Assembly (NCBI RefSeq): GCF_008831285.2
Contig: NC_045141.1
Location: 21,916,742-21,980,741 of the forward strand
Source of the DNA: Nymphaea colorata
Taxonomy: Eukaryota > Streptophyta > Magnoliopsida > Nymphaeales > Nymphaeaceae
DNA: 64,000 nucleotides
Direction: 5' to 3'
Positions 38,003-64,000 of this stretch are shown in pieces. The notes under the pieces are model-generated. The model was not told the DNA's origin and made no database searches. It saw only the letters and a program-made list of their open reading frames with translations. The number at the start of each line of letters is the position of its first letter. Within the stretch, counting starts at the first letter, position 1. A program made the position numbers and the translations under genes.

Positions 38003-38016
38003 ACACACACACACAC

Positions 38017-38060
<44 letters not shown>
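38003..38060. repeat. Compound palindromic microsatellite (AC)n(AT)n(GT)n
   Basis: About seven AC units, seven AT units and fifteen GT units follow directly on one another. AC and GT are each other's complement, so the run can fold back on itself around the AT core. Confidence 0.9.
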
Positions 38061-38062
<2 letters not shown>

Positions 38063-40230: not shown

Positions 40231-40520
40231 CCTTAGAGGGGATAATCCAACAAGCATTTTTCAGTTCAATGTTTGCATATTAGTTACTAACTTACAATAC
40301 TTTTAAGCTTTAGACCAACACATTCAGCCTTGGAGGGGTAATCCAACGAGCATTTTTCAGTTCAATGTTTACCTATTAGTTACGAACTTACAGTACTTTC
40401 AAGCTTTTGACCAACACATTCAGCCTTAGAGGGGATAATCCAACGGGCATTTTTCAGCTCAATGTTTACATATTAGTTACTAACTTACAGTACTTTTAAG
40501 CTTTCGACCAACACATTCAG
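40231..40520. repeat. Tandem repeat, three copies of 96-97 bp
   Basis: Copies start at 40231, 40328 and 40424, each with CCTTAGAGGGGATAATCCAAC (the second slightly altered), CATTTTTCAGTTCAATGTTT and ACCAACACATTCAG. Copies two and three are the most alike. Confidence 0.88.
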
Positions 40521-42222
40521 GAACTTGACCAGATGGCGTACAGTCCAGCAATACCTTTATCACAAGATTATAGTTCATAACATCCATCCTACGCATTGAG
40601 AAACACAAAGTCAGAGGAAAACAATGTAGCATCAGCAGAAAGTTCAGAAATACATTCTTTTTTACCCATTAATAACTAAAGCAACAGATCTTACTGTAAG
40701 AACGTACATGAGCTCTTATACATTTGTATATCTTGTCGCACATAACTATTTCTATACAGCTGTGTTCATAACTTCATGTAGATATACAGTGATCAGTATT
40801 TGTATGATTTGCATATATGGATATTTCTTGGCATAGGTTTTCACGCAATTTTTTATTTCTTTTTTCCTGTCCTCCTCTTCCTACTTCTCTGCTCCTGCAG
40901 ATGCTGCTGTGAGCTTCTTCTTTTCTTTCTTCACTTGCAGCAATTGCAGCTTCTCTTTTTCTTTTTTTCTTTTACTCCCACGTACTCTCTCTGCTCTCTA
41001 CCTCACTTCCTTCTGTCTCCTGATCTCCCTCTGACTTGCTCAGCCTCTCAATCTCCCTCTGCCTCGTTCTGTCAGTGAGCCCCCCATCTCTCATCTCTCG
41101 CTGTTTTTATTTTGGAAGAGACATGAGAGGTGGTGAGTGGGGTTGAGTTGATCTTGACCTTTGGGTCAAACCCAACTCCCCTCCCTCATCTCCATCATGT
41201 GTATAGATGTTAGAAATATACATAAACATATATTATTATTCTTTTCCAATAATACCTTTTTGCTATATGCACACGCACGCACACATATACACTCTACAAT
41301 CTTCCAACTCATTCCTAACCCTAAAATTTGATATTTTCAATGGAAATTCAGAGTTTACCACCACATATACATATACATATTCCTGAAAAGTCATGCTTGC
41401 TTTACGTTTAGTGTTCAATCCTTCCTGCTGTTGTCCCCAAATTAAGAAGTAAATTGCGGATCCTAATCTGTAGATATGGATTTTCGCACACCATGTAGTC
41501 CAATAATTTCATTTATATACACATCAATAAGGCAAATCAAGAGAATGACCGATTGCTATCCATAGAAAATGGGATGGCTTGATGAGTTGAATACAATAAT
41601 CACCTGAATAGCATTATCTTGCCTACGGGTGAGAGGTAATACTATCACAAAATCCATGGCACTGTCGTCCATTTTCACAATGAAATAAACATTCCTTTTA
41701 ATAAACCACCAAGTCACTGATTTATTCTCTGACAGATTAAACATTTGACAACATATTTGGTGACTTCTCGTTTAATTGTGAGCCCACAAAAGTTTTATCT
41801 TGAAACATCTTAGTATTGACAGGATCTAGGAAACTTCAATTGATAGACCCTTTGAAGAATTGTCTTTTCACAAAGAATGTTATGATGTTCACCAAGTTTT
41901 CAACTAGTGCAAAGAATTTTACTAGAAAATATCAAAAGATATTAGTTTAGAAAGGCAGAAATAACTGTCAAAATCCCTTAAAAAAATGAAGAATTATGAG
42001 TTAGCAATCTCACTAGCAAAATTTTTGAAAATTAAAGACTGTTTTAAGCCTTTGAAATTTTTAAGATTTTTCTCGTGAAATGCCTAAGCATATAGAACTT
42101 GTGAAAGTTGTGAACTATGTAAATTAAAAACAATTCCAAAGTACATTGTAAAACTAAAAAACATTTATCAAGATTAAAGTCTGCCGTGAACGTCCATATT
42201 CGTCTATCTTCAAGGGCTTGTC
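40521..42222. other. Intergenic sequence before the retroelement
   Basis: A pyrimidine-rich stretch lies at about 40850-41090. Nothing resembling a copia LTR, a tRNA-Met-type primer-binding site (TGGTATCAGAGC) or a target duplication was found immediately upstream of the gag start at 42223. Confidence 0.45.
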
Positions 42223-43581
42223 ATGACTGCAAATCTACAACATGGCCCTGGAAATCAGCCAGCTGAGGCTGGGGTAGAGTACAAAGTATTCTCAAATCCT
42301 TTTTCTTTTGGATCTACTATCAAACTCGATGGATCTAATTATGATGTTTGGGCTAGAACTTTCATGTTATCAGTTGTTGGACATGGAAAGAAATATATAT
42401 TAGAAGAAGATGAACCAACAGAAAAAGTTGGCAAGTATGCACGGTGGGAGGAAGAAAACAGTATAATTAGTGTGTGGCTTATGAATAGCACTCAACCTCA
42501 TATTGCTGCTGGTCTTTGCTATTATAACACAGCTAAAGATATGTGGAATTCGCTTCGACAGACATACTCTCAAGACAAGAACATCAGCAAAATTCTTCAG
42601 GTTCAGCAAGAACTATTACAAATGCAACAAGGTGACATGGATTTAACTGAATATTTTACCAAATTGAAGTTTAATTATGAAAAGATGAACTCTTTAAAGT
42701 CTCCTTGCAAGCATTGTCTCAAATCTCACATGGAGCAAATGATAGTTGTTAAATTTCTTGCTGGACTATCATCAGATTATTCTGCAGCCAAGGCACAAAT
42801 GCTTACAGGGTCTGATTTTCCGGATCTTGAGGAGGCCTTCAACAGGGTAAATAGACTGGCGGTTACCCTTCCTCCCTCTACAAATAATTCACAGCCTTCT
42901 GCACTTGCCTCATTTAGAAGAGGCCGAAGTGTACAATACCCTTCTCGTGGTAGAGGAAGAGGTCGTGGCCTAGGAGGGCGTGGGAGACTCCAATGCACGT
43001 ATTGCAGTCGTCTTGGTCACCTAGAGGATAAGTGCTGGAACAAAGTGGGTAAACCGAACAATTCTTTGTCCACGACTATGACATCCTCCTCCATACCAGC
43101 TTCAAACTCACAGTCCATTAGTATGGATCCCAAGGTGAATCCCACTGCTGCTTCGGTAGATGCCACGTCTCTCAAGTTAACTCCGGTCGAACTTGAATTA
43201 ATTATGGTGCATCGATCAAATGTTGCACCGTCCACCTCATCGGCTTCTACTGCTATCACAGATTCAGCATTTTCTGCAGGTAGAACTCCCTCTAATGGTT
43301 GTTGGATAATTGACTTTGTAGCGTCTAGACATTTTTGTGGAGATGCTAGTATTCCGAACTTGCAGAAATTTTATCCCTCCCAATATGTAAGATTAGCTGA
43401 TGGAAGACTATCTTCGGTGGAAGGTCATGGAGATGTCCGCCTATCTCCATCTTTACATGTTCATGAAGTGCTTTATACTCCTGAATTCCCAAAGAACCCG
43501 TTATCTGTAAGCAAAATTACTAAAGAGATGAATTGTCGAGTTATTTTTTACACTGGCACTTGTGTATTTCAGGACTTATAG
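42223..43581 (+). pseudogene. copia gag-protease piece ending at a premature stop
   Basis: 452 codons. The gag region (UBN2-type, about 30-230) contains LDGSNYDVWARTFML near the start. An Arg/Gly-rich stretch precedes a CCHC zinc knuckle with C258, C261, H266 and C271. The aspartic protease site is at D364 in WIIDFVASRHF. The family pattern there is D-S/T-G-A-S, so the residues after the catalytic Asp are altered. The frame then ends at TAG 43579-43581, although the downstream sequence continues in the same frame with integrase homology. The stop is therefore a single nonsense change rather than a frameshift. Confidence 0.85.
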
Positions 43582-44097
43582 ACTGAGAGGAAGATTGGTG
43601 GAGGCCATGAGAGATATGGAATCTACTTCATGGATACATTCATTAAAGAGGCGTCCATTTTGGTTGATTCATCTTCAAGTGCATTCCAATGGCATCTCAG
43701 ACTTGGCCATCCGTCATTTCATAAACTTCGGCAGTTATGTCCTCAGATTTCTTCTTCAACCTCCATTGAGTGTGAAGCTTGTCAATTAGGCAAGCATAGT
43801 CGTACATCTTTTCCATCGAGTCAAAGTCAATCCAGCCAAAGTCTATTTGATTTAGTTCATGTTGATGTATGGGGGCCTAGTCGGGTTCCGAGTCGGTTGT
43901 GGTCCCGTTATTATTTTTCCATTGTTGATGTTTTTTCTCGAGTTTTTTGGGTGTTCTTGATGAAAGAAAGATCTAAAGCATCTTGTATCTTGAAATCTTT
44001 CATCTTGGAAATAAAAGCTCAATTTAACACTTGTGTTAAGGTTGTTCGCACTGACAATGCTCTTGAGTTTAAATCTACTTCCCTACTTGAATTCCAC
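42223..44097 (+). mobile_element. Truncated Ty1/copia retrotransposon (gag-protease-integrase fragment)
   Basis: An internal coding fragment runs in the order gag, zinc knuckle, protease, GAG-pre-integrase and integrase core, the Ty1/copia order. Reverse transcriptase and RNase H are absent, because the integrase is cut off where satellite sequence begins at about 44097. No LTRs were found. An in-frame stop splits the polyprotein. The element is dead, and its coding strand has the same orientation as the labelled strand of the satellite. Confidence 0.88.
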
Positions 44098-44114
44098 AAC
44101 TGGCAATTTTACTG
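43582..44114 (+). pseudogene. copia GAG-pre-integrase and partial integrase core
   Basis: This piece continues the upstream frame after the stop. The pre-integrase zinc-binding motif is HLRLGHPSFHKL followed by CEACQLGKH. The integrase core begins with DVWGP (first catalytic Asp) and RTDNALEF (second Asp). The glutamate of the D-D-E triad is missing because the frame runs into satellite DNA and stops at 44112-44114. The final residues are encoded by satellite sequence. Confidence 0.82.
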
Positions 44115-44768
44115 ACGCATCAAGTTGGCCATGCAATCGTAGTGTCAAACTCTACTTGACAATTTTAACATAATGGACGGAATGTTGCTTCATCAAAATC
44201 CTTCTGCATATCTCAAGGTCTAATAGTACAGTTTTCCCTCATGTTGTAAAGGGTTTATCGCATCTTTTGACCTCACAATGAGATGATCATCACACATAAA
44301 CTCTCAAAACTGACCACTATGTCGATGCATCAAGTTGGTCATGCATTTGTTGTGTCAATCGGTCAGTCATTTATTTCAATTTCATCAATTTGAAATTCTT
44401 AACTTGATGGAGGGTACGTTGCTTCATCAAGATCCTTCAGCAGTTCCCAGGTCTAGCGGGACTGTTTCCCCTCTTGTTGTAGAGGGTTCATCGCAACTTT
44501 TGCGCACATAATGAGATGGTCACACATAAACTCCTAAAACAGATAATTATACCGATGCATCAAGTTGGCCATGCATTGGCATTTTTAAACTTTAATTGAC
44601 AATTTTAACTTGATGGAGGCGACGTTCTTGATCAAAATCCTTTTTGTGATCATAGCTCCGACGGGACTGTTTCCCCTTTGGTTGTAAAGGGTTCATCGCA
44701 TCTTTCGCGCTCACAATTAAACGATCATACATAACCTCTAAAAGTTGAACATTATACCGATGCATCAA
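44098..44768. repeat. Left edge of the satellite, diverged monomers
   Basis: Landmark boxes at about 44129, 44334 and 44564 define partial or diverged monomers of the triplet and D types ahead of the first E-type monomer. They differ from the core copies at many positions. The first monomer opens within the former integrase reading frame. Confidence 0.8.
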
Positions 44769-47564
44769 GTTGGCTATGCATTGGTTGTGTCATTCAGTCA
44801 GTCATTTATTTCTATTTCATCCAATTGAAATTTTTAACTTGAAGGAGGGTACCTTGCTTCATCAAGATCCTTCAGAAGTTCCGAGGTCTCACGGGACTGT
44901 TTCCACTCTTGTTGTAGAGGGTTCATCGCATCTTTTGTGATCATAATGAGATCATCACAAAAAAAATCTTAAAATTGACCGTTGCAAAAATGCATCAGGT
45001 TGGCCACGCATTGGTTATGTCTATCAGTCTGCTATTCATTTCAATTGCATCTAATTAACATTTTAAACTTGACGGATTGGGCATTGTATCATCAAGATCC
45101 ATGAGCAATTTTAAAGTCTCGCAGGACTGTTTTCCCTTTTCTTGTGCAAGCGTCATCGCATCTTTTCCGCTCATAATAAGATGATCACACATAACCTCCA
45201 AAAGCTGCCAATTATACCGACCCATCAAGTTGGCCATGCATTGGTTGTATCAATCTCTAATTGAAATTTTTAACTTGATGGAGGGTACGTTGTTTCATCA
45301 AGATCCTTCAGCAGTTCCCAGGTCTCACGGGACTGTTTCCCCTCTTATTGTAGAGGGTTCGTCGCATTTTTTTTTATCATAATGAGATCATCACACATAA
45401 ACTCCAAAAACTGACCATTACACCAATGCGTCAGGTTGGCCATGCATTCGTTATGTCTATCAATCAGCTATTCATTTCAATTGCATCTAATTAACATTTT
45501 TAACTTGATAGAGAGGACGTTGTTTCATCAAGATCATTGATCAATTCCCAGGTCTCGCGTGACTGTTTTCCCTTTTGTTGTGTAGGGCTCATCGCATCTT
45601 TTCGATCATAATAAGATGATCACACATAACCTCCTAAAACTGCCAATTATACCGACGCAACAAGTTGGCCATGCATTGGTTGTATCAATCTCCAATTGAC
45701 ATTTTAAACGGTTTATCGCATCTTTTGAGCTCACAATGAGACGATCATCACACATAAACTCTTAAAACTGACCACTATACCGATGCATCAAGTTGGTCAT
45801 GCATTTGTTGTGTCAATCGGTCAGTCATTTGTTTCAATTTCATCCAGTTGAAATTTTTAACTTGATGGAGGGTACGTTGCATCATCAACATCCTTCAGCA
45901 GTTCCCAGGTCTCACGGGACTGTTTCCCCTCTTATTGTAGGGGGTTCGTCGCATTTTTTTCGATCATAATGAGATCATCACACATAAACTCTAAAAACTG
46001 ACCATTACACCAATACATCAGGTTGGTCATGCATTCGTTATGTCTATCAACCAGCTATTCATTTCAATAGCATCTAATTAACATTTTTAACTTGATAGAG
46101 AGGACGTTGTTTCATCAAGATCATTGATCAATTCCCAGGTCTCGCGGGACTGTTTTCCCTTTTCTTGTGCAGGGCTTATCGCATCTCTTCCGCTCATAAT
46201 AAGATGATCACACATAACCTCCTAAAACTGCCAATTATACCGACGCATCAAGTTGGCCATGCATTGGTTGTATCAATCTCCAATTGACATTTTTAATTTG
46301 ACGGAGGGGACGTTGTTTCATCAAGATCCTTTTGGTGATCTTAGGTCTGACGGGAATATTTCCCCTTTCGTTGTAAAGGGTTTATCGCATCTTTTGAGCT
46401 CACAATGAGACGATCATCACACATAAACTCTTAAAACTGACCACTATATTGATGCATCAAGTTGGTCATGCATTTGTTGTGTCAATCGGTCAGTCATTTG
46501 TTTCAATTTCATCCATTTGAAATTTTTAACTTGATGGAGGGTACGTTGCTTCATCAACATCCTTCAGCAGTTCTCAGGTCTCACGGGACTGTTTCCCCTC
46601 TTGTTGTAGAGGGTTCATCGCATTTTTTTCGATCATAATGAGATCATCCCACATAAACTCCAAAAACTGAACATTACACCAATGCATCAGGTTGGCCATG
46701 CATTCGTTATGTCTATCAATCAGCTATTCATTTCAATTGCATCTAAATAACATTTTTAACTTGATAGAGAAGACGTTGTTTCATCAAGATCCTTGATCAA
46801 TTCCCAGGTCTCACGGGACTGTTTTCCCTTTTCTTGTGCAGGGCTTATCGCATCTTTTCCGCTCATAATAAGATGATCACACATAACCTCCTAAAACTGC
46901 CAATTATACCGACGCATCAAGTTGGCCATGCATTGGTTGTATCAATCTCCAATTGACATTTTTAATTTGATGGAGGGGACGTTGTTTCATCAAGATCCTT
47001 TTGGTGATCTTAGGTCTGACGGGACTATTTCCCCTTTCGTTGTAAAGGGTTTATCGCATCTTTTGAGCTCACAATGAGACGATCATCACACATAAACTCT
47101 TAAAAATGACCACTATACCGATGCATCAAGTTGGTCATGCATTTGTTGTGTCAATCGGTCAGTCATTTGTTTCAATTTCATCCATTTGAAATTTTTAACT
47201 TGATGGAGGGTACGTTGCTTCATCAACATCCTTCAGCAGTTCCCAGGTCTCACGGGACTGTTTCCCCTCTTGTTGTAGAGGGTTCATCGCAACTTTTGAG
47301 CACATAATGAGATGGTCACACATAAACTCTTAAAACTGACAATTATACCGATGCATCAAGTTGGCCATGCATTGGCATTGTCAAACTCTAATTGACAATT
47401 TTAACTTGATGGAGGGGACGTTCTTCATCAAGATCCTTTTTGTGATCATAGCTCCGACGGGACTGTGTCCCCTTTGGTTGTAAAGGGTTCATCGCATCTT
47501 TCGCGCTCACAATGAAACGATCATACATAACCTCTAAAAGTTGACCATTATAACGATGCACCAA
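44769..47564. repeat. Satellite unit, 13-mer (2796 bp)
   Basis: The unit is measured from one E-type landmark (GTTGG of the box) to the next. The order is E, F, G, then three triplet modules, then D. The first triplet has a shortened middle monomer (128 bases, landmarks 45664 to 45792). This is the only unit seen with three triplets. Confidence 0.8.
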
Positions 47565-49766
47565 GTTGGCTATGCAATGGTTGCGTCATTCAGTCAGTCA
47601 TATATTTCTATTTCATCCAATTGAAATTTTTAACTTGAAGGAGGGTACCTTGTTCCATAATGATCCTTCAGAAGTTCCGAGGTCTCATGGGACTGTTTCC
47701 ACTCTTGTTGTAGAGGGTTCATCGCATCTTTTGTGATCATAATGAGATCATCACAAAAAAACTCCTAAAACTGACCGTTGCACCAATGCATCAGGTTGGC
47801 CATGCATTGGTTATGTCTATCGGTCTGCTATTCATTTCAATTGCATCTAATTAACATTTTAAACTTGACGGATTGGACATTGTTTCATCAAGATCCTTGA
47901 GCAATTTTAAAGTCTCGCAGGACTGTTTTCCCTTTTGTTGTGTAGGAGTCATCGCATCTTTTCCGCTCATAATAAGATGATCACACATAACCGCCTAAAA
48001 CTGCCAATTATACCGACGCATCTAGTTGGTCATGCATTGGTTGCATCAATCTCTAATTGAAATTTTTAACTTGATGAAGGGTACGTTGTTTCATCAAGAT
48101 CCTTCAGCAGGTCTCACGGGACTGTTTCCCCTCTTATTGTAGGGGGTTCGTCGCATTTTTTTCGATCATAATGAGATCATCACACATAAACTCTAAAAAC
48201 TGACCATTACACCAATACATCAGGTTGGTCATGCATTCGTTATGTCTATCAACCAGCTATTCATTTCAATTGCATCTAATTAACATTTTTAACTTGATAG
48301 AGAGGACGTTGTTTCATCAAGATCATTGATCAATTCCCAGGTCTCGCGGGACTGTTTTCCCTTTTCTTGTGCAGGGCTTATCGCATCTCTTCCGCTCATA
48401 ATAAGATGATCACACATAACCTCCTAAAACTGCCAATTATACCGACGCATCAAGTTGGCCATGCATTGGTTGTATCAATCTCCAATTGACATTTTTAATT
48501 TGACGGAGGGGACGTTGTTTCATCAAGATCCTTTTGGTGATCTTAGGTCTGACGGGAATATTTCCCCTTTCGTTGTAAAGGGTTTATCGCATCTTTTGAG
48601 CTCACAATGAGACGATCATCACACATAAACTCTTAAAACTGACCACTATATTGATGCATCAAGTTGGTCATGCATTTGTTGTGTCAATCGGTCAGTCATT
48701 TGTTTCAATTTCATCCATTTGAAATTTTAAACTTGATGGAGGGTACGTTGCTTCATCAACATCCTTCAGCAGTTCCCAGGTCTCACGGGACTGTTTCCCC
48801 TCTTGTTGTAGAGGGTTCATCGCATTTTTTTCGATCATAATGAGATCATCCCACATAAACTCCAAAAACTGAACATTACACCAATGCATCAGGTTGGCCA
48901 TGCATTCGTTATGTCTATCAATCAGCTATTCATTTCAATTGCATCTAAATAACATTTTTAACTTGATAGAGAAGACGTTGTTTCATCAAGATCCTTGATC
49001 AATTCCCAGGTCTCGCGGGACTGTTTTCCCTTTTCTTGTGCAGGGCTTATCGCATCTTTTCCGCTCATAATAAGATGATCACACATAACCTCCTAAAACT
49101 GCCAATTATACCGACGCATCAAGTTGGCCATGCATTGGTTGTATCAATCTCCAATTGACATTTTTAATTTGATGGAGGGGACGTTGTTTCATCAAGATCC
49201 TTTTGGTGATCTTAGGTCTGACGGGACTATTTCCCCTTTCGTTGTAAAGGGTTTATCGCATCTTTTGAGCTCACAATGAGACGATCATCACACATAAACT
49301 CTTAAAACTGACCACTATACCGATGCATCAAGTTGGTCATGCATTTGTTGTGTCAATCGGTCAGTCATTTGTTTCAATTTCATCCATTTGAAATTTTTAA
49401 CTTGATGGAGGGTACGTTGCTTCATCAACATCCTTCAGCAGTTCCCAGGTCTCACGGGACTGTTTCCCCTCTTGTTGTAGAGGGTTCATCGCAACTTTTG
49501 AGCACATAATGAGATGGTCACACATAAACTCTTAAAACTGACAATTATATCGATGCATCAAGTTGGCCATGCATTGGCATTGTCAAACTCTAATTGACAA
49601 TTTTAACTTGATGGAGGGGACGTTCTTCATCAAGATCCTTTTTGTGATCATAGCTCCGACGGGACTGTGTCCCCTTTGGTTGTAAAGGGTTCATCGCATC
49701 TTTCGCGCTCACAATGAAACGATCATACATAACCTCTAAAAGTTGACCATTATAACGATGCACCAA
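47565..49766. repeat. Satellite unit, 10-mer (2202 bp)
   Basis: E-F-G, triplet H-I-J, triplet A-B-C, D. Near-identical to the next unit. The monomer at about 48107 carries a 7-base deletion (CAGCAGGTCTCAC instead of CAGCAGTTCCCAGGTCTCAC). Confidence 0.88.
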
Positions 49767-51968
49767 GTTGGCTATGCATTGGTTGCGTCATTCAGTCAGT
49801 CATATATTTCTATTTCATCCAATTGAAATTTTTAACTTGAAGGAGGGTACCTTGTTCCATAATGATCCTTCAGAAGTTCCGAGGTCTCATGGGACTGTTT
49901 CCACTCTTGTTGTAGAGGGTTCATCGCATCTTTTGTGATCATAATGAGATCATCACAAAAAAACTCCTAAAACTGACCGTTGCACCAATGCATCAGGTTG
50001 GCCATGCATTGGTTATGTCTATCGGTCTGCTATTCATTTCAATTGCATCTAATTAACATTTTAAACTTGACGGATTGGACATTGTTTCATCAAGATCCTT
50101 GAGCAATTTTAAAGTCTCGCAGGACTGTTTTCCCTTTTGTTGTGTAGGAGCCATCGCATCTTTTCCGCTCATAATAAGATGATCACACATAATCGCCTAA
50201 AACTGCCAATTATACCGACGCATCTAGTTGGTCATGCATTGGTTGCATCAATCTCTAATTGAAATTTTCAACTTGATGAAGGGTACGTTGTTTCATCAAG
50301 ATCCTTCAGCAGGTCTCACGGGACTGTTTCCCCTCTTATTGTAGGCGGTTCGTCGCATTTTTTTCGATCATAATGAGATCATCACACATAAACTCTAAAA
50401 ACTGACCATTACACCAATACATCAGGTTGGTCATGCATTCTTTATGTCTATCAACCAGCTATTCATTTCAATTGCATCTAATTAACATTTTTAACTTGAT
50501 AGAGAGGACGTTGTTTCATCAAGATCATTGATCAATTCCCAGGTCTCGCGGGACTGTTTTCCCTTTTGTTGTGCAGGGCTTATCGCATCTTTTCCGCTCA
50601 TAATAAGATGATCACACATAACCTCCTAAAACTGCCAATTATACCGACGCATCAAGTTGGCCATGCATTGGTTGTATCAATCTCCAATTGACATTTTTAA
50701 TTTGACGGAGGGGACGTTGTTTCATCAAGATCCTTTTGGTGATCTTAGGTCTGACGGGAATATTTCCCCTTTCGTTGTAAAGGGTTTATCGCATCTTTTG
50801 AGCTCACAATGAGACGATCATCACACATAAACTCTTAAAACTGACCACTATATTGATGCATCAAGTTGGTCATGCATTTGTTGTGTCAATCGGTCAGTCA
50901 TTTGTTTCAATTTCATCCATTTGAAATTTTAAACTTGATGGAGGGTACGTTGCTTCATCAACATCCTTCAGCAGTTCCCAGGTCTCACGGGACTGTTTCC
51001 CCTCTTGTTGTAGAGGGTTCATCGCATTTTTTTCGATCATAATGAGATCATCCCACATAAACTCCAAAAACTGAACATTACACCAATGCATCAGGTTGGC
51101 CATGCATTCGTTATGTCTATCAATCAGCTATTCATTTCAATTGCATCTAAATAACATTTTTAACTTGATAGAGAAGACGTTGTTTCATCAAGATCCTTGA
51201 TCAATTCCCAGGTCTCGCGGGACTGTTTTCCCTTTTCTTGTGCAGGGCTTATCGCATCTTTTCCGCTCATAATAAGATGATCACACATAACCTCCTAAAA
51301 CTGCCAATTATACCGACGCATCAAGTTGGCCATGCATTGGTTGTATCAATCTCCAATTGACATTTTTAATTTGATGGAGGGGACGTTGTTTCATCAAGAT
51401 CCTTTTGGTGATCTTAGGTCTGACGGGACTATTTCCCCTTTCGTTGTAAAGGGTTTATCGCATCTTTTGAGCTCACAATGAGACGATCATCACACATAAA
51501 CTCTTAAAACTGACCACTATACCGATGCATCAAGTTGGTCATGCATTTGTTGTGTCAATCGGTCAGTCATTTGTTTCAATTTCATCCATTTGAAATTTTT
51601 AACTTGATGGAGGGTACGTTGCTTCATCAACATCCTTCAGCAGTTCCCAGGTCTCACGGGACTGTTTCCCCTCTTGTTGTAGAGGGTTCATCGCAACTTT
51701 TGAGCACATAATGAGATGGTCACACATAAACTCTTAAAACTGACAATTATACCGATGCATCAAGTTGGCCATGCATTGGCATTGTCAAACTCTAATTGAC
51801 AATTTTAACTTGATGGAGGGGACGTTCTTCATCAAGATCCTTTTTGTGATCATAGCTCCGACGGGACTGTGTCCCCTTTTGTTGTAAAGGGTTCATCGCA
51901 TCTTTCGCGCTCACAATGAAACGATCATACATAACCTCTAAAAGTTGACCATTATAACGATGCACCAA
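49767..51968. repeat. Satellite unit, 10-mer (2202 bp)
   Basis: The same monomer order and length as the preceding unit, with very few substitutions and the same 7-base deletion at about 50307. Confidence 0.88.
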
Positions 51969-54175
51969 GTTGGCTATGCATTGGTTACGTCATTCAGTCA
52001 GTCATATATTTCTATTTCATCCAATTGAAATTTTTAACTTGAAGGAGGGTACCTTGTTCCATAATGATCCTTCAGAAGTTCCGAGGTCTCATGGGACTGT
52101 TTCCACTCTTGTTGTAGAGGGTTCATCGCATCTTTTGTGATCATAATGAGATCATCACAAAAAAACTCCTAAAACTGACCGTTGCACCAATGCATCAGGT
52201 TGGCCATGCATTGGTTATGCCTATCGGTCTGCTATTCATTTCAATTGCATCTAATTAACATTTTAAACTTGACGGATTGGACATTGTTTCATCAAGATCC
52301 TTGAGCAATTTTAAAGTCTCGCAGGACTGTTTTCCCTTTTGTTGTGTAGGAGCCATCGCATCTTTTCCGCTCATAATAAGATGATCACACATAACCGCCT
52401 AAAACTGCCAATTATACCGACGCATCTAGTTGGTCATGCATTGGTTGCATCAATCTCTAATTGAAATTTTTAACTTGATGAAGGGTACGTTGTTTCATCA
52501 AGATCCTTCAGCAGTTCCCAGGTCTCACGGGACTGTTTCCCCTCTTATTGTAGGCGGTTCGTCGCATTTTTTCGATCATAATGAGATCATCACACATAAA
52601 CTCTAAAAACTGACCATTACACCAATACATCAGGTTGGTCATGCATTCGTTATGTCTATCAACCAGCTATTCATTTCAATTGCATCTAATTAACATTTTT
52701 AACTTGATAGAGAGGACGTTGTTTCATCAAGATCATTGATCAATTCCCAGGTCTCGCGGGACTGTTTTCCCTTTTCTTGTGCAGGGCTTATCGCATCTTT
52801 TCCGCTCATAATAAGATGATCACACATAACCTCCTAAAACTGCCAATTATACCGACGCATCAAGTTGGCCATGCATTGGTTGTATCAATCTCCAATTGAC
52901 ATTTTTAATTTGACGGAGGGGACGTTGTTTCATCAAGATCCTTTTGGTGATCTTAGGTCTGACGGGAATATTTCCCCTTTCGTTGTAAAGGGTTTATCGC
53001 ATCTTTTGAGCTCACAATGAGACGATCATCACACATAAACTCTTAAAACTGACCACTATATTGATGCATCAAGTTGGTCATGCATTTGTTGTGTCAATCG
53101 GTCAGTCAATTGTTTCAATTTCATCCATTTGAAATTTTAAACTTGATGGAGGGTACGTTGCTTCATCAACATCCTTCAGCAGTTCCCAGGTCTCACGGGA
53201 CTGTTTCCCCTCTTGTTGTAGAGGGTTCATCGCATTTTTTTCGATCATAATGAGATCATCTCACATAAACTCCAAAAACTGAACATTACACCAATGCATC
53301 AGGTTGGCCATGCATTCGTTATGTCTATCAATCAGCTATTCATTTCAATTGCATCTAAATAACATTTTTAACTTGATAGAGAAGACGTTGTTTCATCAAG
53401 ATCCTTGATCAATTCCCAGGTCTCGCGGGACTGTTTTCCCTTTCTTGTGCAGGGCTTATCGCATCTTTTCCGCTCATAATAAGATGATCACACATAACCT
53501 CCTAAAACTGCCAATTATACCGACGCATCAAGTTGGCCATGCATTGGTTGTATCAATCTCCAATTGACATTTTTAATTTGATGGAGGGGACGTTGTTTCA
53601 TCAAGATCCTTTTGGTGATCTTAGGTCTGACGGGACTATTTCCCCTTTCGTTGTAAAGGGTTTATCGCATCTTTTGAGCTCACAATGAGACGATCATCAC
53701 ACATAAACTCTTAAAACTGACCACTATACCGATGCATCAAGTTGGTCATGCATTTGTTGTGTCAATCGGTCAGTCATTTGTTTCAATTTCATCCATTTGA
53801 AATTTTTAACTTGATGGAGGGTACGTTGCTTCATCAACATCCTTCAGCAGTTCCCAGGTCTCACGGGACTGTTTCCCCTCTTGTTGTAGAGGGTTCATCG
53901 CAACTTTTGAGCACATAATGAGATGGTCACACATAAACTCTTAAAACTGACAATTATACCGATGCATCAAGTTGGCCATGCATTGGCATTGTCAAACTCT
54001 AATTGACAATTTTAACTTGATGGAGGGGACGTTCTTCATCAAGATCCTTTTTGTGATCATAGCTCCGACGGGACTGTGTCCCCTTTGGTTGTAAAGGGTT
54101 CATCGCATCTTTCGCGCTCACAATGAAACGATCATACATAACCTCTAAAAGTTGATCATTATAACGATGCACCAA
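51969..54175. repeat. Satellite unit, 10-mer (2207 bp)
   Basis: The same order as its neighbours. The 7-base deletion is absent here (intact at about 52509), which accounts for most of the extra length. Confidence 0.88.
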
Positions 54176-55708
54176 GTTGGCTATGCATTGGTTGCGTCAT
54201 TCAGTCAGTCATATATTTCTATTTCATCCAATTGAAATTTTTAACTTGAAGGAGGGTACCTTGTTCCATAATGATCCTTCAGAAGTTCCGAGGTCTCATG
54301 GGACTGTTTCCACTCTTGTTGTAGAGGGTTCATCGCATCTTTTGTGATCATAATGAGATCATCACAAAAAAACTCCTAAAACTGACCGTTGCACCAATGC
54401 ATCAGGTTGGCCATGCATTGGTTATGCCTATCGGTCTGCTATTCATTTCAATTGCATCTAATTAACATTTTAAACTTGACGGATTGGACATTGTTTCATC
54501 AAGATCCTTGAGCAATTTTAAAGTCTCGCAGGACTGTTTTCCCTTTTGTTGTGTAGGAGCCATCGCATCTTTTCCGCTTATAATAAGATGATCACACATA
54601 ACCGCCTAAAACTGCCAATTATACCGACGCATCTAGTTGGTCATGCATTGGTTGCATCAATCTCTAATTGAAATTTTTAACTTGATGAAGGGTACGTTGT
54701 TTCATCAAGATCCTTCAGCAGGTCTCACGGGACTGTTTCCCCTCTTATTGTAGGCGGTTCGTCGCATTTTTTTCGATCATAATGAGATCATCACACATAA
54801 ACTCTAAAAACTGACCATTACACCAATACATCAGGTTGGTCATGCATTCGTTATGTCTATCAACCAGCTACTCATTTCAATTGCATCTAATTAACATTTT
54901 TAACTTGATAGAGAGGACGTTGTTTCATCAAGATCATTGATCAATTCCCAGGTCTCGCGGGACTGTTTTCCCTTTTGTTGTGCAGGGCTTATCGCATCTT
55001 TTCCGCTCATAATAAGATGATCACACATAACCTCCTAAAACTGCCAATTATACCGACGCATCAAGTTGGCCATGCATTGGTTGTATCAATCTCCAATTGA
55101 CATTTTTAATTTGACGGAGGGGACGTTGTTTCATCAAGATCCTTTTGGTGATCTTAGGTCTGACGGGAATATTTCCCCTTTCGTTGTAAAGGGTTTATCG
55201 CATCTTTTGAGCTCACAATGAGACGATCATCACACATAAACTCTTAAAACTGACCACTATATCGATGCATCAAGTTGGTCATGCATTTGTTGTGTCAATC
55301 GGTCAGTCATTTGTTTCAATTTCATCCATTTGAAATTTTTAACTTGATGGAGGGTACGTTGCTTCATCAACATCCTTCAGCAGTTCCCAGGTCTCACGGT
55401 ACTGTTTCCCCTCTTGTTGTAGAGGGTTCATCGCAACTTTTGAGCACATAATGAGATGGTCACACATAAACTCTTAAAACTGATAATTATACCGATGCAT
55501 CAAGTTGGCCATGCACTGGCATTGACAAACTCTAATTGACAATTTTAACTTGATGGAGGGGACGTTCTTCATCAAGATCCTTTTTGTGATCATAGCTCCG
55601 ACGGGACTGTGTCCCCTTTGGTTGTAAAGGGTTCATCGCATCTTTCGCGCTCACAATGAAACGATCATACATAACCTCTAAAAGTTGACCATTATAACGA
55701 TGCACCAA
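54176..55708. repeat. Satellite unit, 7-mer (1533 bp) with J/C hybrid
   Basis: E-F-G, H-I, a J/C-like monomer at about 55270, then D. One triplet module is missing. The 7-base deletion is present at about 54717. Confidence 0.85.
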
Positions 55709-57245
55709 GTTGGCTATGCATTGGTTGCGTCATTCAGTCAGTCATATATTTCTATTTCATCCAATTGAAATTTTTAACTTGAAGGAGGGTACCTTGTTCC
55801 ATAATGATCCTTCAGAAGTTCCGAGGTCTCATGGGACTGTTTCCACTCTTGTTGTAGAGGGTTCATCGCATCTTTTGTGATCATAATGAGATCATCACAA
55901 AAAAACTCCTAAAACTGACCGTTGCACCAATGCATCAGGTTGGCCATGCATTGGTTATGTCTATCGGTCTGCTATTCATTTCAACTGCATCTAATTAACA
56001 TTTTAAACTTGACGGATTGGACATTGTTTCATCAAGATCCTTGAGCAATTTTAAAGTCTCGCAGGACTGTTTTCCCTTTTGTTGTGTAGGAGCCATCGCA
56101 TCTTTTCCGCTCATAATAAGATGATCACACATAACCGCCTAAAACTGTGAATTATACCGACGCATCAAGTTGGCCATGCATTGGTTGTATCAATCTCTAA
56201 TTGAAATTTTTTACTTGATGGAGGGTACGTTGTTTCATCAAGATCCTTCAGCAGTTCCCAGGTCTCACGGGACTGTTTCCCCTCTTATTGTAGGGGGTTC
56301 GTCGCATTTTTTTCGATCATAATGAGATCATCACACATAAACTCTAAAAACTGACCATTACAAAAATACATCAGGTTGGTCATGCATTCGTTATGTCTAT
56401 CAACCAGCTATTCATTTCAATTGCATCTAATTAACATTTTTAACTTGATAGAGAGGACGTTGTTTCATCAAGATCATTGATCAATTCCCAGGTCTCGCGG
56501 GACTGTTTTCCCTTTTCTTGTGCAGGGCTTATCGCATCTTTTCCGCTCATAATAAGATGATCACACATAACCTCCTAAAACTGCCAATTATACCGACGCA
56601 TCAAATTGGCCATGCATTGGTTGTATCAATCTCCAATTGACATTTTTAATTTGACGGCGAGGACGTTTCATCAAGATCCTTTTGGTGATCTTAGGTCTGA
56701 CGGGAATATTTCCCCTTTCGTTCTAAAGGGTTTATCGCATCTTTTGAGCTCACAATGAGACGATCATCACACATAAACTCTTAAAACTGACCACTATATT
56801 GATGTATCAAGTTGGTCATGCATTTGTTGTGTCAATCGGTCAGTCATTTGTTTCAATTTCAGCCATTTGAAATTTTTAACTTGATGGAGGGTACGTTGCT
56901 TCATCAACATCCTTCAGCAGTTCCCAGGTCTCACGGGACTGTTTCCCCTCTTGTTGTAGAGGGTTCATCGCATTTTTTTCGATCATAATGAGATCATCCC
57001 ACATAAACTCCAAAAACTGAACATTACAACAATGCATCAGGTTGGCCATGCATTGGCATTTTCAAAATTTAATTGACAATTTTAACTTGATAGAGGGGAC
57101 ATTCTTCATCAAGATCCTTTCTGTGATCATAACTCCGACGGGACTATTTCCCCTTTGGTTGTAAAGGGTTCATCGCATCTTTCGCACTCACAATGAAACG
57201 ATCATACATAACCTCTAAAAGTTGACCATTATACCGATGCACCAA
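55709..57245. repeat. Satellite unit, 7-mer (1537 bp) with A/D hybrid
   Basis: E-F-G, H-I-J, then a monomer at about 57041 that enters as type A (AACATTAC...ATGCATCAGG) and leaves as type D (GCATTGGCATTTTCAAA). Again one triplet is missing, but by a different junction. Confidence 0.85.
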
Positions 57246-59401
57246 GTTGGCTATGCATTGATTGTGTCATTCAGTCAGTCATTTCTTTCTATTTCATCCA
57301 ATTGAAATTTTTAACTTGAAGGAGGGTACCTTGCTTCATCAAGATCCTTCAAAAGTTCCGAGGTCTCACGAGACTGTTTCCACTCTTGTTCTAGAGGGTT
57401 CATCGCATCTTTTGTGATCATAATGAGATCATCACAAAAAAACTCCTAAAACTGTCCGTTGCACCAATGCATCAAGTTGGCCATGCATTGGTAATGTCTA
57501 TCAGTCTGCAATTCATTTCAATTGCATCTAATTAACATTTCAAACTTGACGGATGGGACATTGTTTCGTCAAGATCCTTGAGCAATTTTAAAGTCTCGCA
57601 GGACTGTTTTCCCTTTTGTTGTGCAAGCGTCATGGCATCCTTTCCGCTCATTATAAAATGATCACACATAACCTCCTAAAACTGCCAATTATACCGACGC
57701 ATCAAGTTGGCCTTGCATTGGTTGTATCAATCTCTAATTGAAATTTTTAACTTGATGGAGGGTACGTTGTTTCATCAAGATCCTTCAGCAGTTCCCAGGT
57801 CTCACGGGACTGTTTCCCCTCTTATTGTAGAGGGTTCGTCGCATTTTTTTCGATCATAATGAGATCATCACACATAAACTCCAAAAACTGACCATTACAC
57901 CAATGCGTCAGCTTGGCCATGCATTCGTTATGTCTATCAATCAGCAATTCATTTCAATTGCATCTAATTAACATTTTTAACTTGATAGAGAGGACGTTGT
58001 TTGATTAATATCATTGATCAATTCCCAGGTCTCGCGGGACTGTTTTCCCTTTTGTTGGGAAGGGCTATCGCATATTTTCGATCATAATAAGATGATCACA
58101 CATAACCTCCGAAAACTGCCAATTATACCAACGCATCAAGTTGGCCATGCATTGGTTGTACCAATCTCCAATTGACTTTTTAATTTGATGGAGGGGACGT
58201 TGTTTCATCAAGATCCTTTTGCCGATCTTAGGTCTGATGGGACTATATACCCTTTTGTTGTAAAGGGTTTATCGCATCTTTTGAGCCCACAGTGAGATGA
58301 TCATCACACATAAACTCTTAAAACTGACCACTATATCGATGCATCAAGTTGGTCATGCATTTGTTGTGTCAATCCGTCAGTCATTTATTTCAATTTCATC
58401 CATTTGAAATTCTTAACTTGATGGAGGGTACGTTGCTTCATCAAGATCCTTCAGCAGTTCCCAGGCCTCGCGGAACTGTTTCCCCTCTTGTTGTAGAGGG
58501 TTCATCGCATTTTTTTCGATCATAATGAGATCATCCCACATAAACTCCAAAAACTAACCATTACACCAATGCATCAGGTTGGCAATGCATTTGTTACGTC
58601 AATCAATCAGCTATTCATTTCAATTGCATCTAAATAACATTTTTAACTTGATAGAGAAGACGTTCTTTCATCAAGATCCTTGATCAATTCCCAGGTCTCG
58701 CGGGACTGTTTTACCTTTTGTTGTGCAGGGCTTATCGCAACTTTTCCGCTCATAATAAGATGATCACACATAACCCCCTAAAACTGCCAATTGACATTTT
58801 TAATTTGATGGAGGGGAAGTTGTTTCATCAAGATCCTTTTGTTGATCTTAGGTCTGACGGGACTATTTCCCCTTTTGTTGTAAAGGGTTTATCGCATCTT
58901 TTGACCTCACAATGAGATGATCATCACACATAAACTCTTAACACTGACCACTATGTCGATGCATTAAGTTGGTCATGCATTTGTTGTGTCAATCGGTCAG
59001 TCATTTATTTCAATTTCATCAATTTGAAATTCTTAACTTGATGGAGGGTACGTTGCTTCATCAAGATCCTTCAGCAGTTCCAAGGACTCGCGGGACTGTT
59101 TCCCCTGTTGTTGTAGAGGGTTCATCGCAATTTTGCGCACATAATGAGATGGTCACACATAAACTCGTAAAACTGGCAATTATACCGATGCATCAAGTTG
59201 GCCATGCATTGGCATTTTCAAAATTTAATTGACAATTTTAACTTGATGGAGGGCACGTTCTTCATCAAGATCCTTTCTGTGACCATAACTCCGACGGGAC
59301 TGTTTCCCCTTTGGTTGTAAAGGGTTCATCGCATCTTTCGCGCTCACAATGAAACGATCATACATAACCTCTAAAAGTTGACCATTATACCGATGCACCA
59401 A
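57246..59401. repeat. Satellite unit, 10-mer with internal 46-bp deletion (2156 bp)
   Basis: Two triplets are present. In the second, the landmark box of the B-type monomer is lost at about 58790, where ACTGCCAATTGACATTTTT joins directly. Confidence 0.82.
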
Positions 59402-61606
59402 GTTGGCTATGCATTGATTGTGTCATTCAGTCAGTCATTTCTTTCTATTTCATCCAATTGAAATTTTTAACTTGAAGGAGGGTACCTTGCTTCATCAAGA
59501 TCCTTCAGAAGTTCCGAGGTCTCACGAGACTGTTTCCACTCTTGTTCTAGAGGGTTCATCGCATCTTTTGTGATCATAATGAGATCATCACAAAAAAACT
59601 CCTAAAACTGTCCGTTGCACCAATGCATCAAGTTGGCCATGCATTGGTAATGTCTATCAGTCTGCAATTCATTTCAATTGCATCTAATTAACATTTCAAA
59701 CTTGACGGATGGGACATTGTTTCGTCAAGATCCTTGAGCAATTTTAAAGTCTCGCAGGACTGTTTTCCCTTTTGTTGTGCAAGCGTCATGGCATCCTTTC
59801 CGCTCATTATAAAATGATCACACATAACCTCCTAAAACTGCCAATTATACCGACGCATCAAGTTGGCCTTGCATTGGTTGTATCAATCTCTAATTGAAAT
59901 TTTTAACTTGATGGAGGGTACGTTGTTTCATCAAGATCCTTCAGCAGTTCCCAGGTCCCACGGGACTGTTTCCCCTCTTATTGTAGAGGGTTCGTCGCAT
60001 TTTTTTCGATCATAATGAGATCATCACACATAAACTCCAAAAACTGACCATTACACCAATGCGTCAGCTTGGCCATGCATTCGTTATGTCTATCAATCAG
60101 CAATTCATTTCAATTGCATCTAATTAACATTTTTAACTTGATAGAGAGGACGTTGTTTGATTAATATCGTTGATCAATTCCCAGGTCTCGCGGGACTGTT
60201 TTCCCTTTTGTAGGAAAGGGCTATCGCATATTTTCGATCATAATAAGATGATCACACATAACCTCCGAAAACTGCCAATTATACCAACGCATCAAGTTGG
60301 CCATGCATTGGTTGTATCAATCTCCAATTGACTTCTTAATTTGATGGAGGGGACGTTGATTCATCAAGATCCTTTTGGTGATCTTAGCTCTGACGGGACT
60401 ATTTCCCCCTTTGTTGTAAAGGGTTTATCGCTTCTTTTGCGCTCACAATGAGATTATCATCACACATAAACTCTTAAAACTGACCACTATATCGATGCAT
60501 CAAGTTGGTCATGCATTTGTTGTGTCAATCGGTCAGTCATTTGTTTCAATTTCATCCATTTGAAATTTTCAACTTGATGGAGGGTACGTTGATTCATCAA
60601 CATCCTTCAGCAGTTCCCAGGTCTCGCGGAACTGTTTCCCCTCTTGTTGTAGAGGGCTCATCGCATTTTTTTCGATCATAATGAGATCATCCCACATAAA
60701 CTCCAAAAACTAACCATTACACCAATGCATCAGGTTGGCCATGCATTCGTTACGTCAATCAATCAGCTATTCATTTCAATTGCATCTAAATAACATTTTT
60801 AACTTGATAGAGAAGACATTGTTTCATCAAGATCCTTGATCAATTCCCAGGTCTCGCGGGACTGTTTTACCTTTTGTTGTGCAGGGCTTATCGCAACTTT
60901 TCCGCTCATAATAAGATGATCACACATAACCTCCTAAAACTGCCAATTATACCGACGCATCAAGTTGGCCACGCATTGGTTTTATCAATCTCCAATTGAC
61001 ATTTTTAATTTGATGGAGGGGACATTGTTTTATCAAGATCCTTTTGGTGATCTTATGTCTGACGGGACTATTTCCCCTTTTGTTGTAAAGGGTTTATCGC
61101 ATCTTTTGACCACACAATGAGATGATCATCACACATAAACTGTAAAAACTGACCACTATGTTGATGCATCAAGTTGGTCATGCATTTGTTGTGTCAATCG
61201 GTGAGCATTTATTTCAATTTCATCCATTTGAAATTCTTAACTTGATGGAGGGTACGTTGCTTCATCAAGATCCTTCAGCAGTTCCCAGGTCTCGCGGGAC
61301 TGTTTCCCTTCTTGTTGTAGAGGGTTCATCGCAACTTTTGCGCACATAATGAGATGGTCACACATAAACTCCTAAAACTGACAATTATACCGATGCATCA
61401 AGTTGGCCATGCATTGGCATTGTCAAACTCTAATTGACAATTTTAACTTGATGGAGGGAACGTTCTTCATCAAGATCCTTTTTGTGATCATAGCTCCGAC
61501 GGGACTGTTTCCCCATTGGTTGTAAAGGGTTCATCGCATCTTTCGCGCTCACAATGAAAGGATCATACATAACCTCTAAAAGTTGACCATTATACCGATG
61601 CATCAA
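59402..61606. repeat. Satellite unit, 10-mer (2205 bp)
   Basis: E-F-G, two triplets, D. The first part (to about 60.35 kb) is almost identical to the start of the preceding unit. Confidence 0.85.
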
Positions 61607-63144
61607 GTTGGCTATGCATTGGTTGTGTCATTCAGTCAGTCATTTATTTCTATTTCATCCAATTGAAATTTTTGAATTGAAGGAGGGTACCTTGCTTCAT
61701 CAAGATCCTTCAGAAGTTCTGAGGTCTCACGCGACTGTTTCGACTCTTGTTGTAGAGGGTTCATCGCATCTTTTGTGATCATAATGAGATCATCACAAAA
61801 AAAATCCTAAAATTGACCGTTGCACCAATGCATCAGGTTGGCCACGCATTGGTTATGTCTATCAGTCTGCTATTCATTTCAATTGCATCTAATTAACATT
61901 TGAAACTTGACGGATTGGACATTGTTTCATCATGATCCTTGAGCAATTTTAAAGTCTCGCAAGACTGTTTCCCCTTTTGTTGTGCAGCCGTCATCGCATC
62001 TTTTCCGCATATAATAAGATGATCACACATAACCTCCTAAAACTGCCAATTATACCGACGCAACAAGTTGGCCATGCATTGGTTGTATCAATCTCTAATT
62101 GAAATTTTTAACTTGATGGAGGGTACGTTGTTTCATCAAGATCGTTCAGCAATTCCCAGGTCTCACGGGACTGTTTCTCCTCTTATTGTAGAGGGTTCGT
62201 CGCATTTTTTTCGATCATAATGAGATCATCACACATAAACTCCAAAAACTGACCATTACACCAATGCGTCAGGTTGGCCATGCATTCGTTATGTCTATCA
62301 ATCAGCTATTCATTTCAATTGCATCTAATAAACAATTTTAACTTGATAGAGACGACGTTGTTTCATCAAGATCATTGATCAATTACCATGTCTCGCGGGA
62401 CTGTTTTCCCTTTTGTTGGAAAGGGCTCATCGCATCTTTTCGATCATAATAAGATGATCACAGATAACTTCCGAAAACTGCCAATTATACCGACGCATCA
62501 AGTTGGCCATGCATTGGTTGTATCAGTCTCCAATTGACTTCTTAATTTGATGGAGGGGACGTTGTTTCATCAAGATCCTTTTGTTGATCTTAGGTCTGAC
62601 GGGACTATTTCCCCTTTTGTTGTAAAGGGTTTATGGCATCTTTTCACCTCACAATGAGATGATCATCACACATAAACTCTTAAAACTGACCACTATATCG
62701 ATGCATAAAGTTGGTCATGCGTTTGTTGTGTCAATCGGTCAGTCATTTATTTCAATTTCATCCATTTGAAATTCTTAACTTGATGGAGGGTACGTTGCTT
62801 CATCAAGATCCTTCAGCAGTTCCCAGGTCTAGCGGGACTGTTTCCCCTCTTGTTGTAGAGGGTTCATCGAAACTTTTGGGCACATAATGAGATGGTCACA
62901 CATAAACTTCTAAAACTGACAATTATACTGATGCATCAAGTTGGCCATGCATTGGCATTGTCAAACTCTAATTGACAATTTTAACTTGATGGAGGGGACG
63001 TGCTTCATCAAGATCCTTTTTGTGATCATTGCTCCGACGGGACTGCTTCCCCTTTGGTTCTAAAGGGTTAATCGCATCTTTCGCGCTCACAATGAAACGA
63101 TCATACATAACCTCTAAAAGTTGACCATTATACTGATGCATCAA
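61607..63144. repeat. Satellite unit, 7-mer (1538 bp)
   Basis: E-F-G, a single triplet (landmarks near 62273, 62503 and 62709), D near 62939. Its sequence is more diverged from the core units. Confidence 0.82.
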
Positions 63145-64000
63145 GTTGGCTATGTATTGCTTGTGTCATTCAGTCAGTCATTTATTTCTATTTCATCCAA
63201 TTGAAATTTTTAACTTGAAGGAGGGTACCTTGTTTCATCAAGATCCTTCAGAAGTTCCGAGGTCTCACAGGACTGTTTCCACTCTTGTTGTAGACGGTTG
63301 ATCGCATCTTTTGTCATCATAATGAGATCATCAGAAAAAAACTCCTAAAACTGACCGTTGCACCAATGCATCAGGTTGGCCATGCATTGGTTATGTCTAT
63401 CAGTCAGTTATTCATTTCAATTGCATCTAATTAACATTTTAAACTTGACGGATTGGACATTGTTTCATCAAGATCCTTGAGCAATTTTAAAGTCTCGCAG
63501 GACTGTTTTCCCTTTTGTTGTGCAGGCGTCATCGCATCTTTTCCGCTCATAATAAGATGATCACACATAACCTCTTAAAACTGCCAATTATAACGACGCA
63601 TCAAGTTGGCCATGCATTGGTTGTATCAATCTCTAATTGAAATTTTTAACTTGATGGAGGGTACGTTGTTTCATCAAGATCTTTCAGCAGTTCCCAGGTC
63701 TCACGGGACTGTTTCCCCTCTTATTGTAGAGGGTTCGTCGCATTTTTTTCGATCATAATGAGATCATCACACATAAACTCCAAAAACTGACCATTACACC
63801 AATGCGTCAGGTTGGCCATGCATTCGTTATGTCTACAAATCAGCTATTCATTTCAATTGCATCTAATTAACAATTTTAACTTGATAGAGAGGACGTTGTT
63901 TCATCAAGATCATTGATAAATTCCCAGGTCTCGCGGGACTGTTTTCCCTTTTGTTGGAAAGGGCTCATCGCATCTTTTCGATCATAATAAGATGATCACA
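63145..64000. repeat. Satellite unit, partial at window end
   Basis: E, F, G and the start of a triplet, cut by the window edge. The array shows no sign of ending. Confidence 0.85.

What the first reader, a model, noticed from the sequence alone, without database searches (positions are those of the whole stretch)
44769..63144. Variable triplet module gives 7-, 10- and 13-mer units in one array
E-to-E spacings are 2796, 2202, 2202, 2207, 1533, 1537, 2156, 2205 and 1538 bases. They fit a constant D-E-F-G block (about 864 bp) plus one, two or three copies of a three-monomer module (about 669 bp). H-I-J and A-B-C are paralogous copies of that module. This reads as repeat-within-repeat growth and loss.
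Basis: seen in the sequence. Interest (0 to 1): 0.85.

Follow-up and report, generated by a model that had tools for sequence, protein, structure and literature searches.

The report
Nested higher-order repeats in plant satellite
A non-coding tandem repeat in what looks like a plant genome is built from units of 7, 10 or 13 sub-repeats that grow and shrink in steps of three, and hybrid sub-repeats still show where unequal exchanges took place; the process is well known, but here it can be read at fine scale.

Summary
The array runs from window 44095 to 6.9 kb past the window end (about 26.9 kb, about 123 monomers of ~206 or ~230 bp). All nine spacings are reproduced exactly (starts of my d monomers). 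In my letters a unit is a block c-d-e-f (871 bp) plus one, two or three g-h-i modules (mostly 662-669 bp). Of 13 complete units six are 10-mers, five 7-mers, one a 13-mer and one, beyond the window, a 9-mer.
Growth and loss of a three-monomer module holds, with corrections. Three of the four 'constant' monomers are paralogues of module monomers.
Exchange scars are visible: g2 and c share their first ~95 bp but not the rest; c at 56878 is a second g2/c hybrid; the 9-mer carries an e/f hybrid.
A copy of the locus 750 kb away (flank blocks ~95% identical) has another architecture, as do C3 and C12 arrays.
An ordinary mechanism, unequal exchange in a satellite, unusually well resolved. Function was not tested.

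The parts
44095..64000 (+). satellite array, window part (continues 6,946 bases past the window, to C4:21987687)
   Evidence: nhmmer monomer profile, 92 matches in the window; joined stretch, 124 of 124 matches on +
44401..47196 (+). 13-monomer unit c-d-e-f-(g-h-i)x3, 2796 bp
45702..45858 (+). i monomer of the 13-mer that lacks its head
   Evidence: matches profile positions 77-191 only
45859..46088 (+). middle g monomer of the 13-mer: g2-like at the first two diagnostic columns, then mostly g1-like
   Evidence: only 8 informative sites, not significant (5733 of 20000 shuffles as good)
47197..53807 (+). three 10-monomer units c-d-e-f-(g-h-i)x2, fixed blocks 99.3-99.4% identical to each other
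48730..48959 (+). example of g2, the g that opens the last module of 10- and 13-mers: head (first ~95 bp) as in c, rest as in g
53808..56877 (+). two 7-monomer units c-d-e-f-g-h-i
56878..57083 (+). c monomer that is a g2/c hybrid, break between alignment columns 173 and 188: scar expected when a module is lost by g2 x c exchange
   Evidence: 33 of 35 informative sites fit one break, 0 of 20000 shuffles as good
56878..61238 (+). two 10-monomer units; the first has a short h at 58645-58801
61239..62776 (+). 7-monomer unit
62777..64000 (+). start of a 10-monomer unit that crosses the window end
42190..44112 (+). Copia-type gag and pre-integrase/integrase fragment, cut off where the satellite begins
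   Evidence: Pfam Retrotran_gag_2, Pol_BBD, gag_pre-integrs above their cut-offs, rve below its cut-off
35050..41267 (.). left part of a duplicated segment whose other copy, with its own array, lies at C4:22705612-22739575
   Evidence: blastn, four main blocks 94-97% identical

Best explanation
This is a higher-order-repeat satellite that changes size by out-of-register exchange (unequal crossing over, or gene conversion leading to the same products) between neighbouring units. The unit skeleton is c-d-(g-h)n-i. An old duplication of the pair g-h gave e-f beside g-h (inferred from the tree and from the lack of e and f in the sister array). A duplication of the trio g-h-i gave the 10-mer. Since then pairing that slips by one trio has added or removed one trio at a time, giving 13-, 10- and 7-mers. 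The slip is easy because the stretch before g2 (...g-h-i) is nearly the same as the stretch before c (...g-h-i), and g2 and c share about 95 bp more. Shown: the unit sizes, the trees, the hybrids and where they break. Inferred: the order of events, and crossing over rather than conversion or replication slippage. The array most likely has no function of its own (inferred; not tested): it is non-coding repeat DNA near genes that turns over by recombination.
For: 12 of 13 complete units have 7, 10 or 13 monomers; the other is the 9-mer. g2 and c are 96.6% identical in alignment columns 1-98 but 78.4% in columns 99-190, while g2 and g1 are 92.2% and 94.2%. Trees of the two parts disagree: c+g2 79/83 in columns 1-95, g1+g2 98/91 in columns 97-235. 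The array-1 c consensus is explained by one break between g2 and the sister array's c at 42 of 42 informative sites, break between columns 85 and 101, 0 of 20000 shuffles as good. c at 56878, right after a 7-mer, is a second g2/c hybrid with another break (33 of 35 sites, 0 of 20000). The 9-mer holds an e/f hybrid (53 of 60 sites, 0 of 20000). The neighbouring units at 47197, 49399, 51601 and 53808 have fixed blocks 99.3-99.5% identical. The sister array at C4:22.7138-22.7294 Mb has monomers closest to c, d, g, h and i, none closest to e or f, and repeats g plus a shortened h instead.
Against: One near-identical fixed block (64983; 99.2-99.4% to the four units at 47197-53808) lies about 10 kb from them with more diverged units between; simple neighbour-to-neighbour crossing over does not give that in one step, conversion would. 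c and g2 copies share variants at two columns, which looks like repeated exchange rather than one founding event. The direction of the g2/c exchange rests on three sister-array c monomers that are only 87% identical to each other in the first part; with sister g in place of g2 the one-break fit of c is weaker (39 of 44 sites, 247 of 20000), and against single sister c monomers it varies (1905, 25 and 120 of 20000). g2 read as c head on g1 body fits 37 of 39 sites (43 of 20000). The middle g of the 13-mer is not significant as a hybrid (5733 of 20000). The e/f hybrid has seven misfit sites, six of them in two short f patches inside the e part.
Confidence: 0.85

Rival explanations
1. Gene conversion and replication slippage, without reciprocal crossing over, made the hybrids and size changes. 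(This overlaps with the best explanation, which leaves the kind of exchange open, so the two confidences need not add to one.)
For: Shared variants between c and g2, f patches inside the e part of the hybrid, and a near-identical block about 10 kb away from its relatives.
Against: A run of adjacent near-identical units (47197-55340) and whole-module steps are what repeated unequal exchange gives; slippage is not excluded by them.
Confidence: 0.4
2. The unit-size mixture is an assembly artefact.
For: Near-identical neighbouring 10-mers (99.3-99.4%) are a usual cause of misassembly, and no reads were available. On C12 an unplaced contig, 99.1% identical over 3,797 columns, has two more 8-mers than the placed copy, so unit number elsewhere in this assembly is uncertain.
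Against: Units of all sizes differ at many bases and carry private hybrids and deletions; both array ends run into non-satellite flank on one 27.7-Mb contig.
Confidence: 0.07
3. The array is a working (peri)centromere of chromosome C4.
For: HOR satellites are typical of many centromeres (recalled; also the theme of papers seen in the listings).
Against: Only 27 kb; open frames in the window and right flank match phosphoesterase, RING, HLH, tetraspanin and RPAP1_N models. Of 26 fetched loci scanned, only the two of the C3 array matched the monomer profile; among those without a match are two 1-kb samples at C4:22.2 and 22.4 Mb. The related arrays seen are also small, as far as fetched (contig C336 ends inside its array).
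Confidence: 0.04
4. The satellite derives from, or is carried by, a Copia retrotransposon.
For: Its left end abuts a Copia gag/integrase fragment; the sister array abuts a frame that looks gag-like by eye, for which the one stretch tested (L014:8220-8855) gave no Pfam family.
Against: The two fragments look different by eye. The elements inside the sister and C3 arrays have their own LTRs and, by eye, 5-bp target duplications inside monomers, so they landed in existing satellite.
Confidence: 0.05

Closest known systems
Cascading alpha-satellite HORs of primates (for example the human chromosome 15 15-mer with 4-, 7- and 11-monomer subfragments; PMC11050224, passages seen)
   Same: Some monomer types occur more than once inside one unit, so units contain shorter internal periods, and variants occur beside the main form.
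   Different: Unrelated 206/230-bp monomers; one small array, not shown to be centromeric; no unit size makes up most copies (six 10-mers of 13 units), while the paper's two cascading arrays are 65% and 94% canonical.
Crossover-made domains in human alpha satellite (PMC2853522, passages seen)
   Same: Local blocks of near-identical units, with conversion adding differences between them.
   Different: Here the unit itself changes length, and hybrid monomers at the exchange points can be named.
Plant higher-order satellites, such as Arabidopsis CEN178 and the Vigna unguiculata array (both only named in PMC12371157, passages seen; the rest recalled)
   Same: Plant satellite with higher-order organisation.
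   Different: No evidence of centromere function; two sister arrays lie in a duplicated segment near genes.

Membership tests
Higher-order repeat (HOR) satellite (criteria recalled) | Monomers within a unit differ clearly, equivalent monomers of successive units are far more alike | tested here: met
   Seven classes 69-87% identical to each other, 95.0-95.9% within (three single-row labels left out); fixed blocks 92.3-99.5%
Higher-order repeat (HOR) satellite (criteria recalled) | Head-to-tail tandem order, one orientation | tested here: met
   124 of 124 matches on the + strand
[quoted passage not shown]
   g, h and i occur two or three times in 10- and 13-mers; h copies and i copies form one clade each on all columns, though not in every part: h is not one clade in columns 97-235 and i not in columns 1-95
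Cascading HOR (PMC11050224) | Alpha-satellite monomers of about 171 bp, as in the paper | tested here: not met
   Monomers of about 206 and 230 bp; so it works like a cascading HOR but is not filed as one of the alpha-satellite kind
Centromeric satellite | CENH3 binding | not testable with these tools
   No chromatin data
Centromeric satellite | Long array in a gene-poor region (recalled as typical) | tested here: not met
   27-kb array, gene families in the window and right flank
Unequal-exchange product | Hybrid monomers with one break | tested here: met
   e/f hybrid, c at 56878, and array-1 c against g2 and sister c each 0 of 20000 shuffles as good; g2 against c and g1 43 of 20000; the monomer at 45859 not significant (5733 of 20000)
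Unequal-exchange product | Reciprocal products or exchange of flanking markers | not testable with these tools
   One assembly only

The most novel reading that the evidence does not exclude
The shared 95-bp head of g2 and c, next to a shared g-h-i stretch, works as a built-in exchange site that makes the array switch between 7-, 10- and 13-mers again and again; and two copies of one duplicated locus, starting from the same c-d-g-h-i unit, were driven to different architectures because different internal modules (g-h-i in one, g-h in the other) became the unit of growth. That would make this locus pair a natural replicate experiment on how higher-order repeats choose their growing module.
Probability: 0.35. 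Interest if true: 0.55.

Novelty: new member of a known kind. Interest (0 to 1): 0.38.

Why it matters
How higher-order repeats arise and change is usually hard to follow because centromeric arrays are huge and nearly uniform. Here a 27-kb array keeps mixed unit sizes, monomers diverged enough to name, and hybrids whose breaks can be placed; and a second copy of the same locus took another path. That lets models of satellite growth be tested with single long reads. The mechanism itself is textbook, so the value is as a clean case.

Tried and rejected
Fuzzy-regex cutting of monomers timed out and was replaced by nhmmer. A first tree that held the e/f hybrid did not show e as one clade; the hybrid was left out afterwards and e is one clade at 100/99. 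The tree with the other arrays stopped on a script error and was rerun; there one d row (index 60) was left out by a slip, so 13 of 14 d rows were used. I first read g2 as c head on g body; comparison with the sister array fits array-1 c having taken a g2 head somewhat better, but the direction is left open. A centromere role and a Copia origin are rated unlikely. I make no claim that this array is undescribed; the six paper searches were not aimed at this species beyond.

Dropped rows. Trees: monomers 0, 1 and 8 (partial, first of the array, truncated i), also the e/f hybrid; these, the hybrid at 56878, the one d row above, and rows under 190 bases. Consensus of c: without the 56878 monomer; the first two monomers, those at the truncated i, and those touching the e/f hybrid. 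Flank identity of 94.7%: 8 of the 16 rows (13,628 columns, one of them a 1,356-column block at 89.5%); the eight dropped are internal-repeat or short matches, among them 281 columns at 77.6% and 151 at 97.4%; itself listed only matches of 150 or more columns outside the array.

Full report
LETTERS. I use small letters for my monomer classes, cut at the conserved start: fixed block c-d-e-f, module g-h-i; g1 is a g that follows f, g2 the g that opens the last module of a 10- or 13-mer.

WHAT IS THERE. The window is C4:21916742-21980741 of a 407.8-Mb assembly of 783 contigs. Open frames in and beside the window match Pfam phosphoesterase, RING finger, HLH, tetraspanin and RPAP1_N models, and Copia gag and pre-integrase (10 frames tested, 2 without a family); I take it to be a plant. 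The satellite runs from 44095 to 6,946 bases past the window end, 124 profile matches all on one strand. Monomers are of two lengths, about 206 (c, f, h) and about 230 bp (d, e, g, i), and this is also the deepest split in the clustering. The complete units from 44401 on have 13, 10, 10, 10, 7, 7, 10, 10, 7, 10, 7, 7 and 9 monomers: 13 units, of which six 10-mers, five 7-mers, one 13-mer and one 9-mer, then a last c-d-e-f at the array end.

J and C do not pair: J joins G (81/87) with one of the five matching 7-mer monomers, while C joins the other four (99/96). The call does not print which one joins J; by position and it should be the one that runs into the hybrid at 56878. In my phase, on all columns, the h copies (98/85) and i copies (95/95) are one clade each; g1 and g2 are sisters in columns 97-235 (98/91) but not on all columns nor in columns 1-95, where g2 groups with c (79/83).

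THE DEEPER LAYER. The fixed block is made of the same stock as the module: f+h and d+i 100/100 each on all columns, e+g 100/97 in columns 97-235. Mean identities are e-g 86.6%, f-h 86.9%, d-i 84.8%. The unit therefore reads c-d-(gh-type pair)(gh)-i plus extra g-h-i modules.

EXCHANGE SCARS. (1) g2 and c are 96.6% identical in columns 1-98 and 78.4% in columns 99-190. Against the sister array's c, array-1 c switches from g2 to c once, between columns 85 and 101, with 42 of 42 informative sites in agreement (0 of 20000 shuffles). This is what would remain when g2 and c recombine and a g-h-i is lost or gained. With g1 in place of g2 the fit is 40 of 41 (0 of 20000), with the sister g 39 of 44 (247 of 20000), and against the three sister c monomers one by one 1905, 25 and 120 of 20000. 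The reverse view, g2 as c head on g1 body, fits 37 of 39 sites (43 of 20000). Which monomer gave the head is not settled. (2) c at 56878, which follows a 7-mer, is g2 up to columns 173-188 and c after (33 of 35; 0 of 20000), a separate scar of the same kind. (3) The 9-mer beyond the window has one e/f hybrid in place of e and f (53 of 60; 0 of 20000); six of the seven misfits lie in two short f patches inside the e part. (4) The middle g of the 13-mer looks g2-like at its first two diagnostic sites and mostly g1-like later, but with eight sites this is not significant (5733 of 20000).

AGE STRUCTURE. Fixed blocks at 47197, 49399, 51601 and 53808 are 99.3-99.5% identical to each other; 55341 is 98.5-98.6% to them. 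The others are 92.7-95.2% to these four, except 64983 (99.2-99.4%) and the last block at 70042 (98.2-98.3%), which lie about 10-15 kb away. Adjacent amplification and some longer-range copying both seem needed.

THE SISTER LOCUS. Blocks of window 35050 to 80094 (that is, to 16 kb past the window end) match C4:22705612-22739575 in the same order and orientation. Eight main blocks average 94.7% over 13,628 columns. The array between them (22.7138-22.7294 Mb) has monomers closest to c, d, g, h or i of the window array and none closest to e or f; same-class means are 85-92%. In the tree, c with sister c (97/93) and d with sister d (100/99) are clades (columns 102-240). On all columns g with sister g is (97/88), but sister i monomers are not one group with i. 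There g plus a 134-136-bp shortened h is repeated (13 short h copies), and an order g-h-i-g-(h or c)-i occurs once. An LTR element sits in it (LTRs 98.9% identical over 268 columns). I infer that a c-d-g-h-i type unit was present before the duplication, and that the two copies then enlarged different modules. Whether e-f arose before the duplication and was lost is open: the all-column tree puts e outside g plus sister g (97/88) but f inside with h, sister h outside (99/81).

OTHER ARRAYS. C3 from 20.0358 to at least 20.0639 Mb holds a long-short dimer array of about 440 bp per dimer, broken by insertions; the sample at 20.068 Mb had no match, the 4 kb before it were not fetched. 16 dimers of L031 average 88% identical. 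C12:15.1047-15.1081 Mb holds an 8-monomer unit of ~230-bp monomers with a 7-monomer variant, and unplaced contig C336 has nearly the same sequence (99.1% over 3,797 columns) with two more 8-mers. So the arrays examined on C3, C4 and C12 each have their own higher-order form. The genome searches give lower bounds on copies.

MECHANISM AND STATUS. Out-of-register exchange explains the step of three monomers, the hybrids and the local blocks; conversion is probably mixed in. All of this is known from alpha satellite: cascading HORs with internal subfragments (PMC11050224, passages) and crossover-made domains with conversion (PMC2853522, passages). I file the array as a new member of a known kind, HOR satellites. 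Function was not tested; a centromere role is unlikely from size and surroundings but no chromatin data were at hand.

Noticed in passing
L015:1241-6471; L017 583-5447 and from about 7225 on: Related Copia-type elements interrupt the satellite monomer at nearby profile positions (about 99-123) at three places in two arrays; the first two are in opposite orientation, each with what looks by eye like a 5-bp target duplication. May be an insertion preference; chance was not tested.
   Followed up: partly
L042 and L043 (C12:15104001-15108500 and C336:10501-18038): Placed and unplaced copies of the C12 array are 99.1% identical over 3,797 columns but differ by two whole 8-monomer units: haplotype length difference or assembly fault.
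   Followed up: partly
window 35050-64000 on to L010; sister copy C4:22705612-22739575: Segmental duplication of about 45 kb (here) and 34 kb (there), 750 kb apart on one chromosome, with a further local repeat of 393 bp (98.7%) in the right flank.
   Followed up: partly
window 42190-44112 and L014 7406-8855: Each of the two C4 arrays begins, on the same side, at a truncated Copia-like fragment; by eye the two fragments are of different kinds, and the L014 one has no Pfam match in the part tested.
   Followed up: no
window 40231-40520: Three tandem copies of a 97-bp repeat, also present in the sister locus.
   Followed up: no
L020 7674-8226: Three tandem copies of a sequence of about 184 bp, 98-99% identical.
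   Followed up: no
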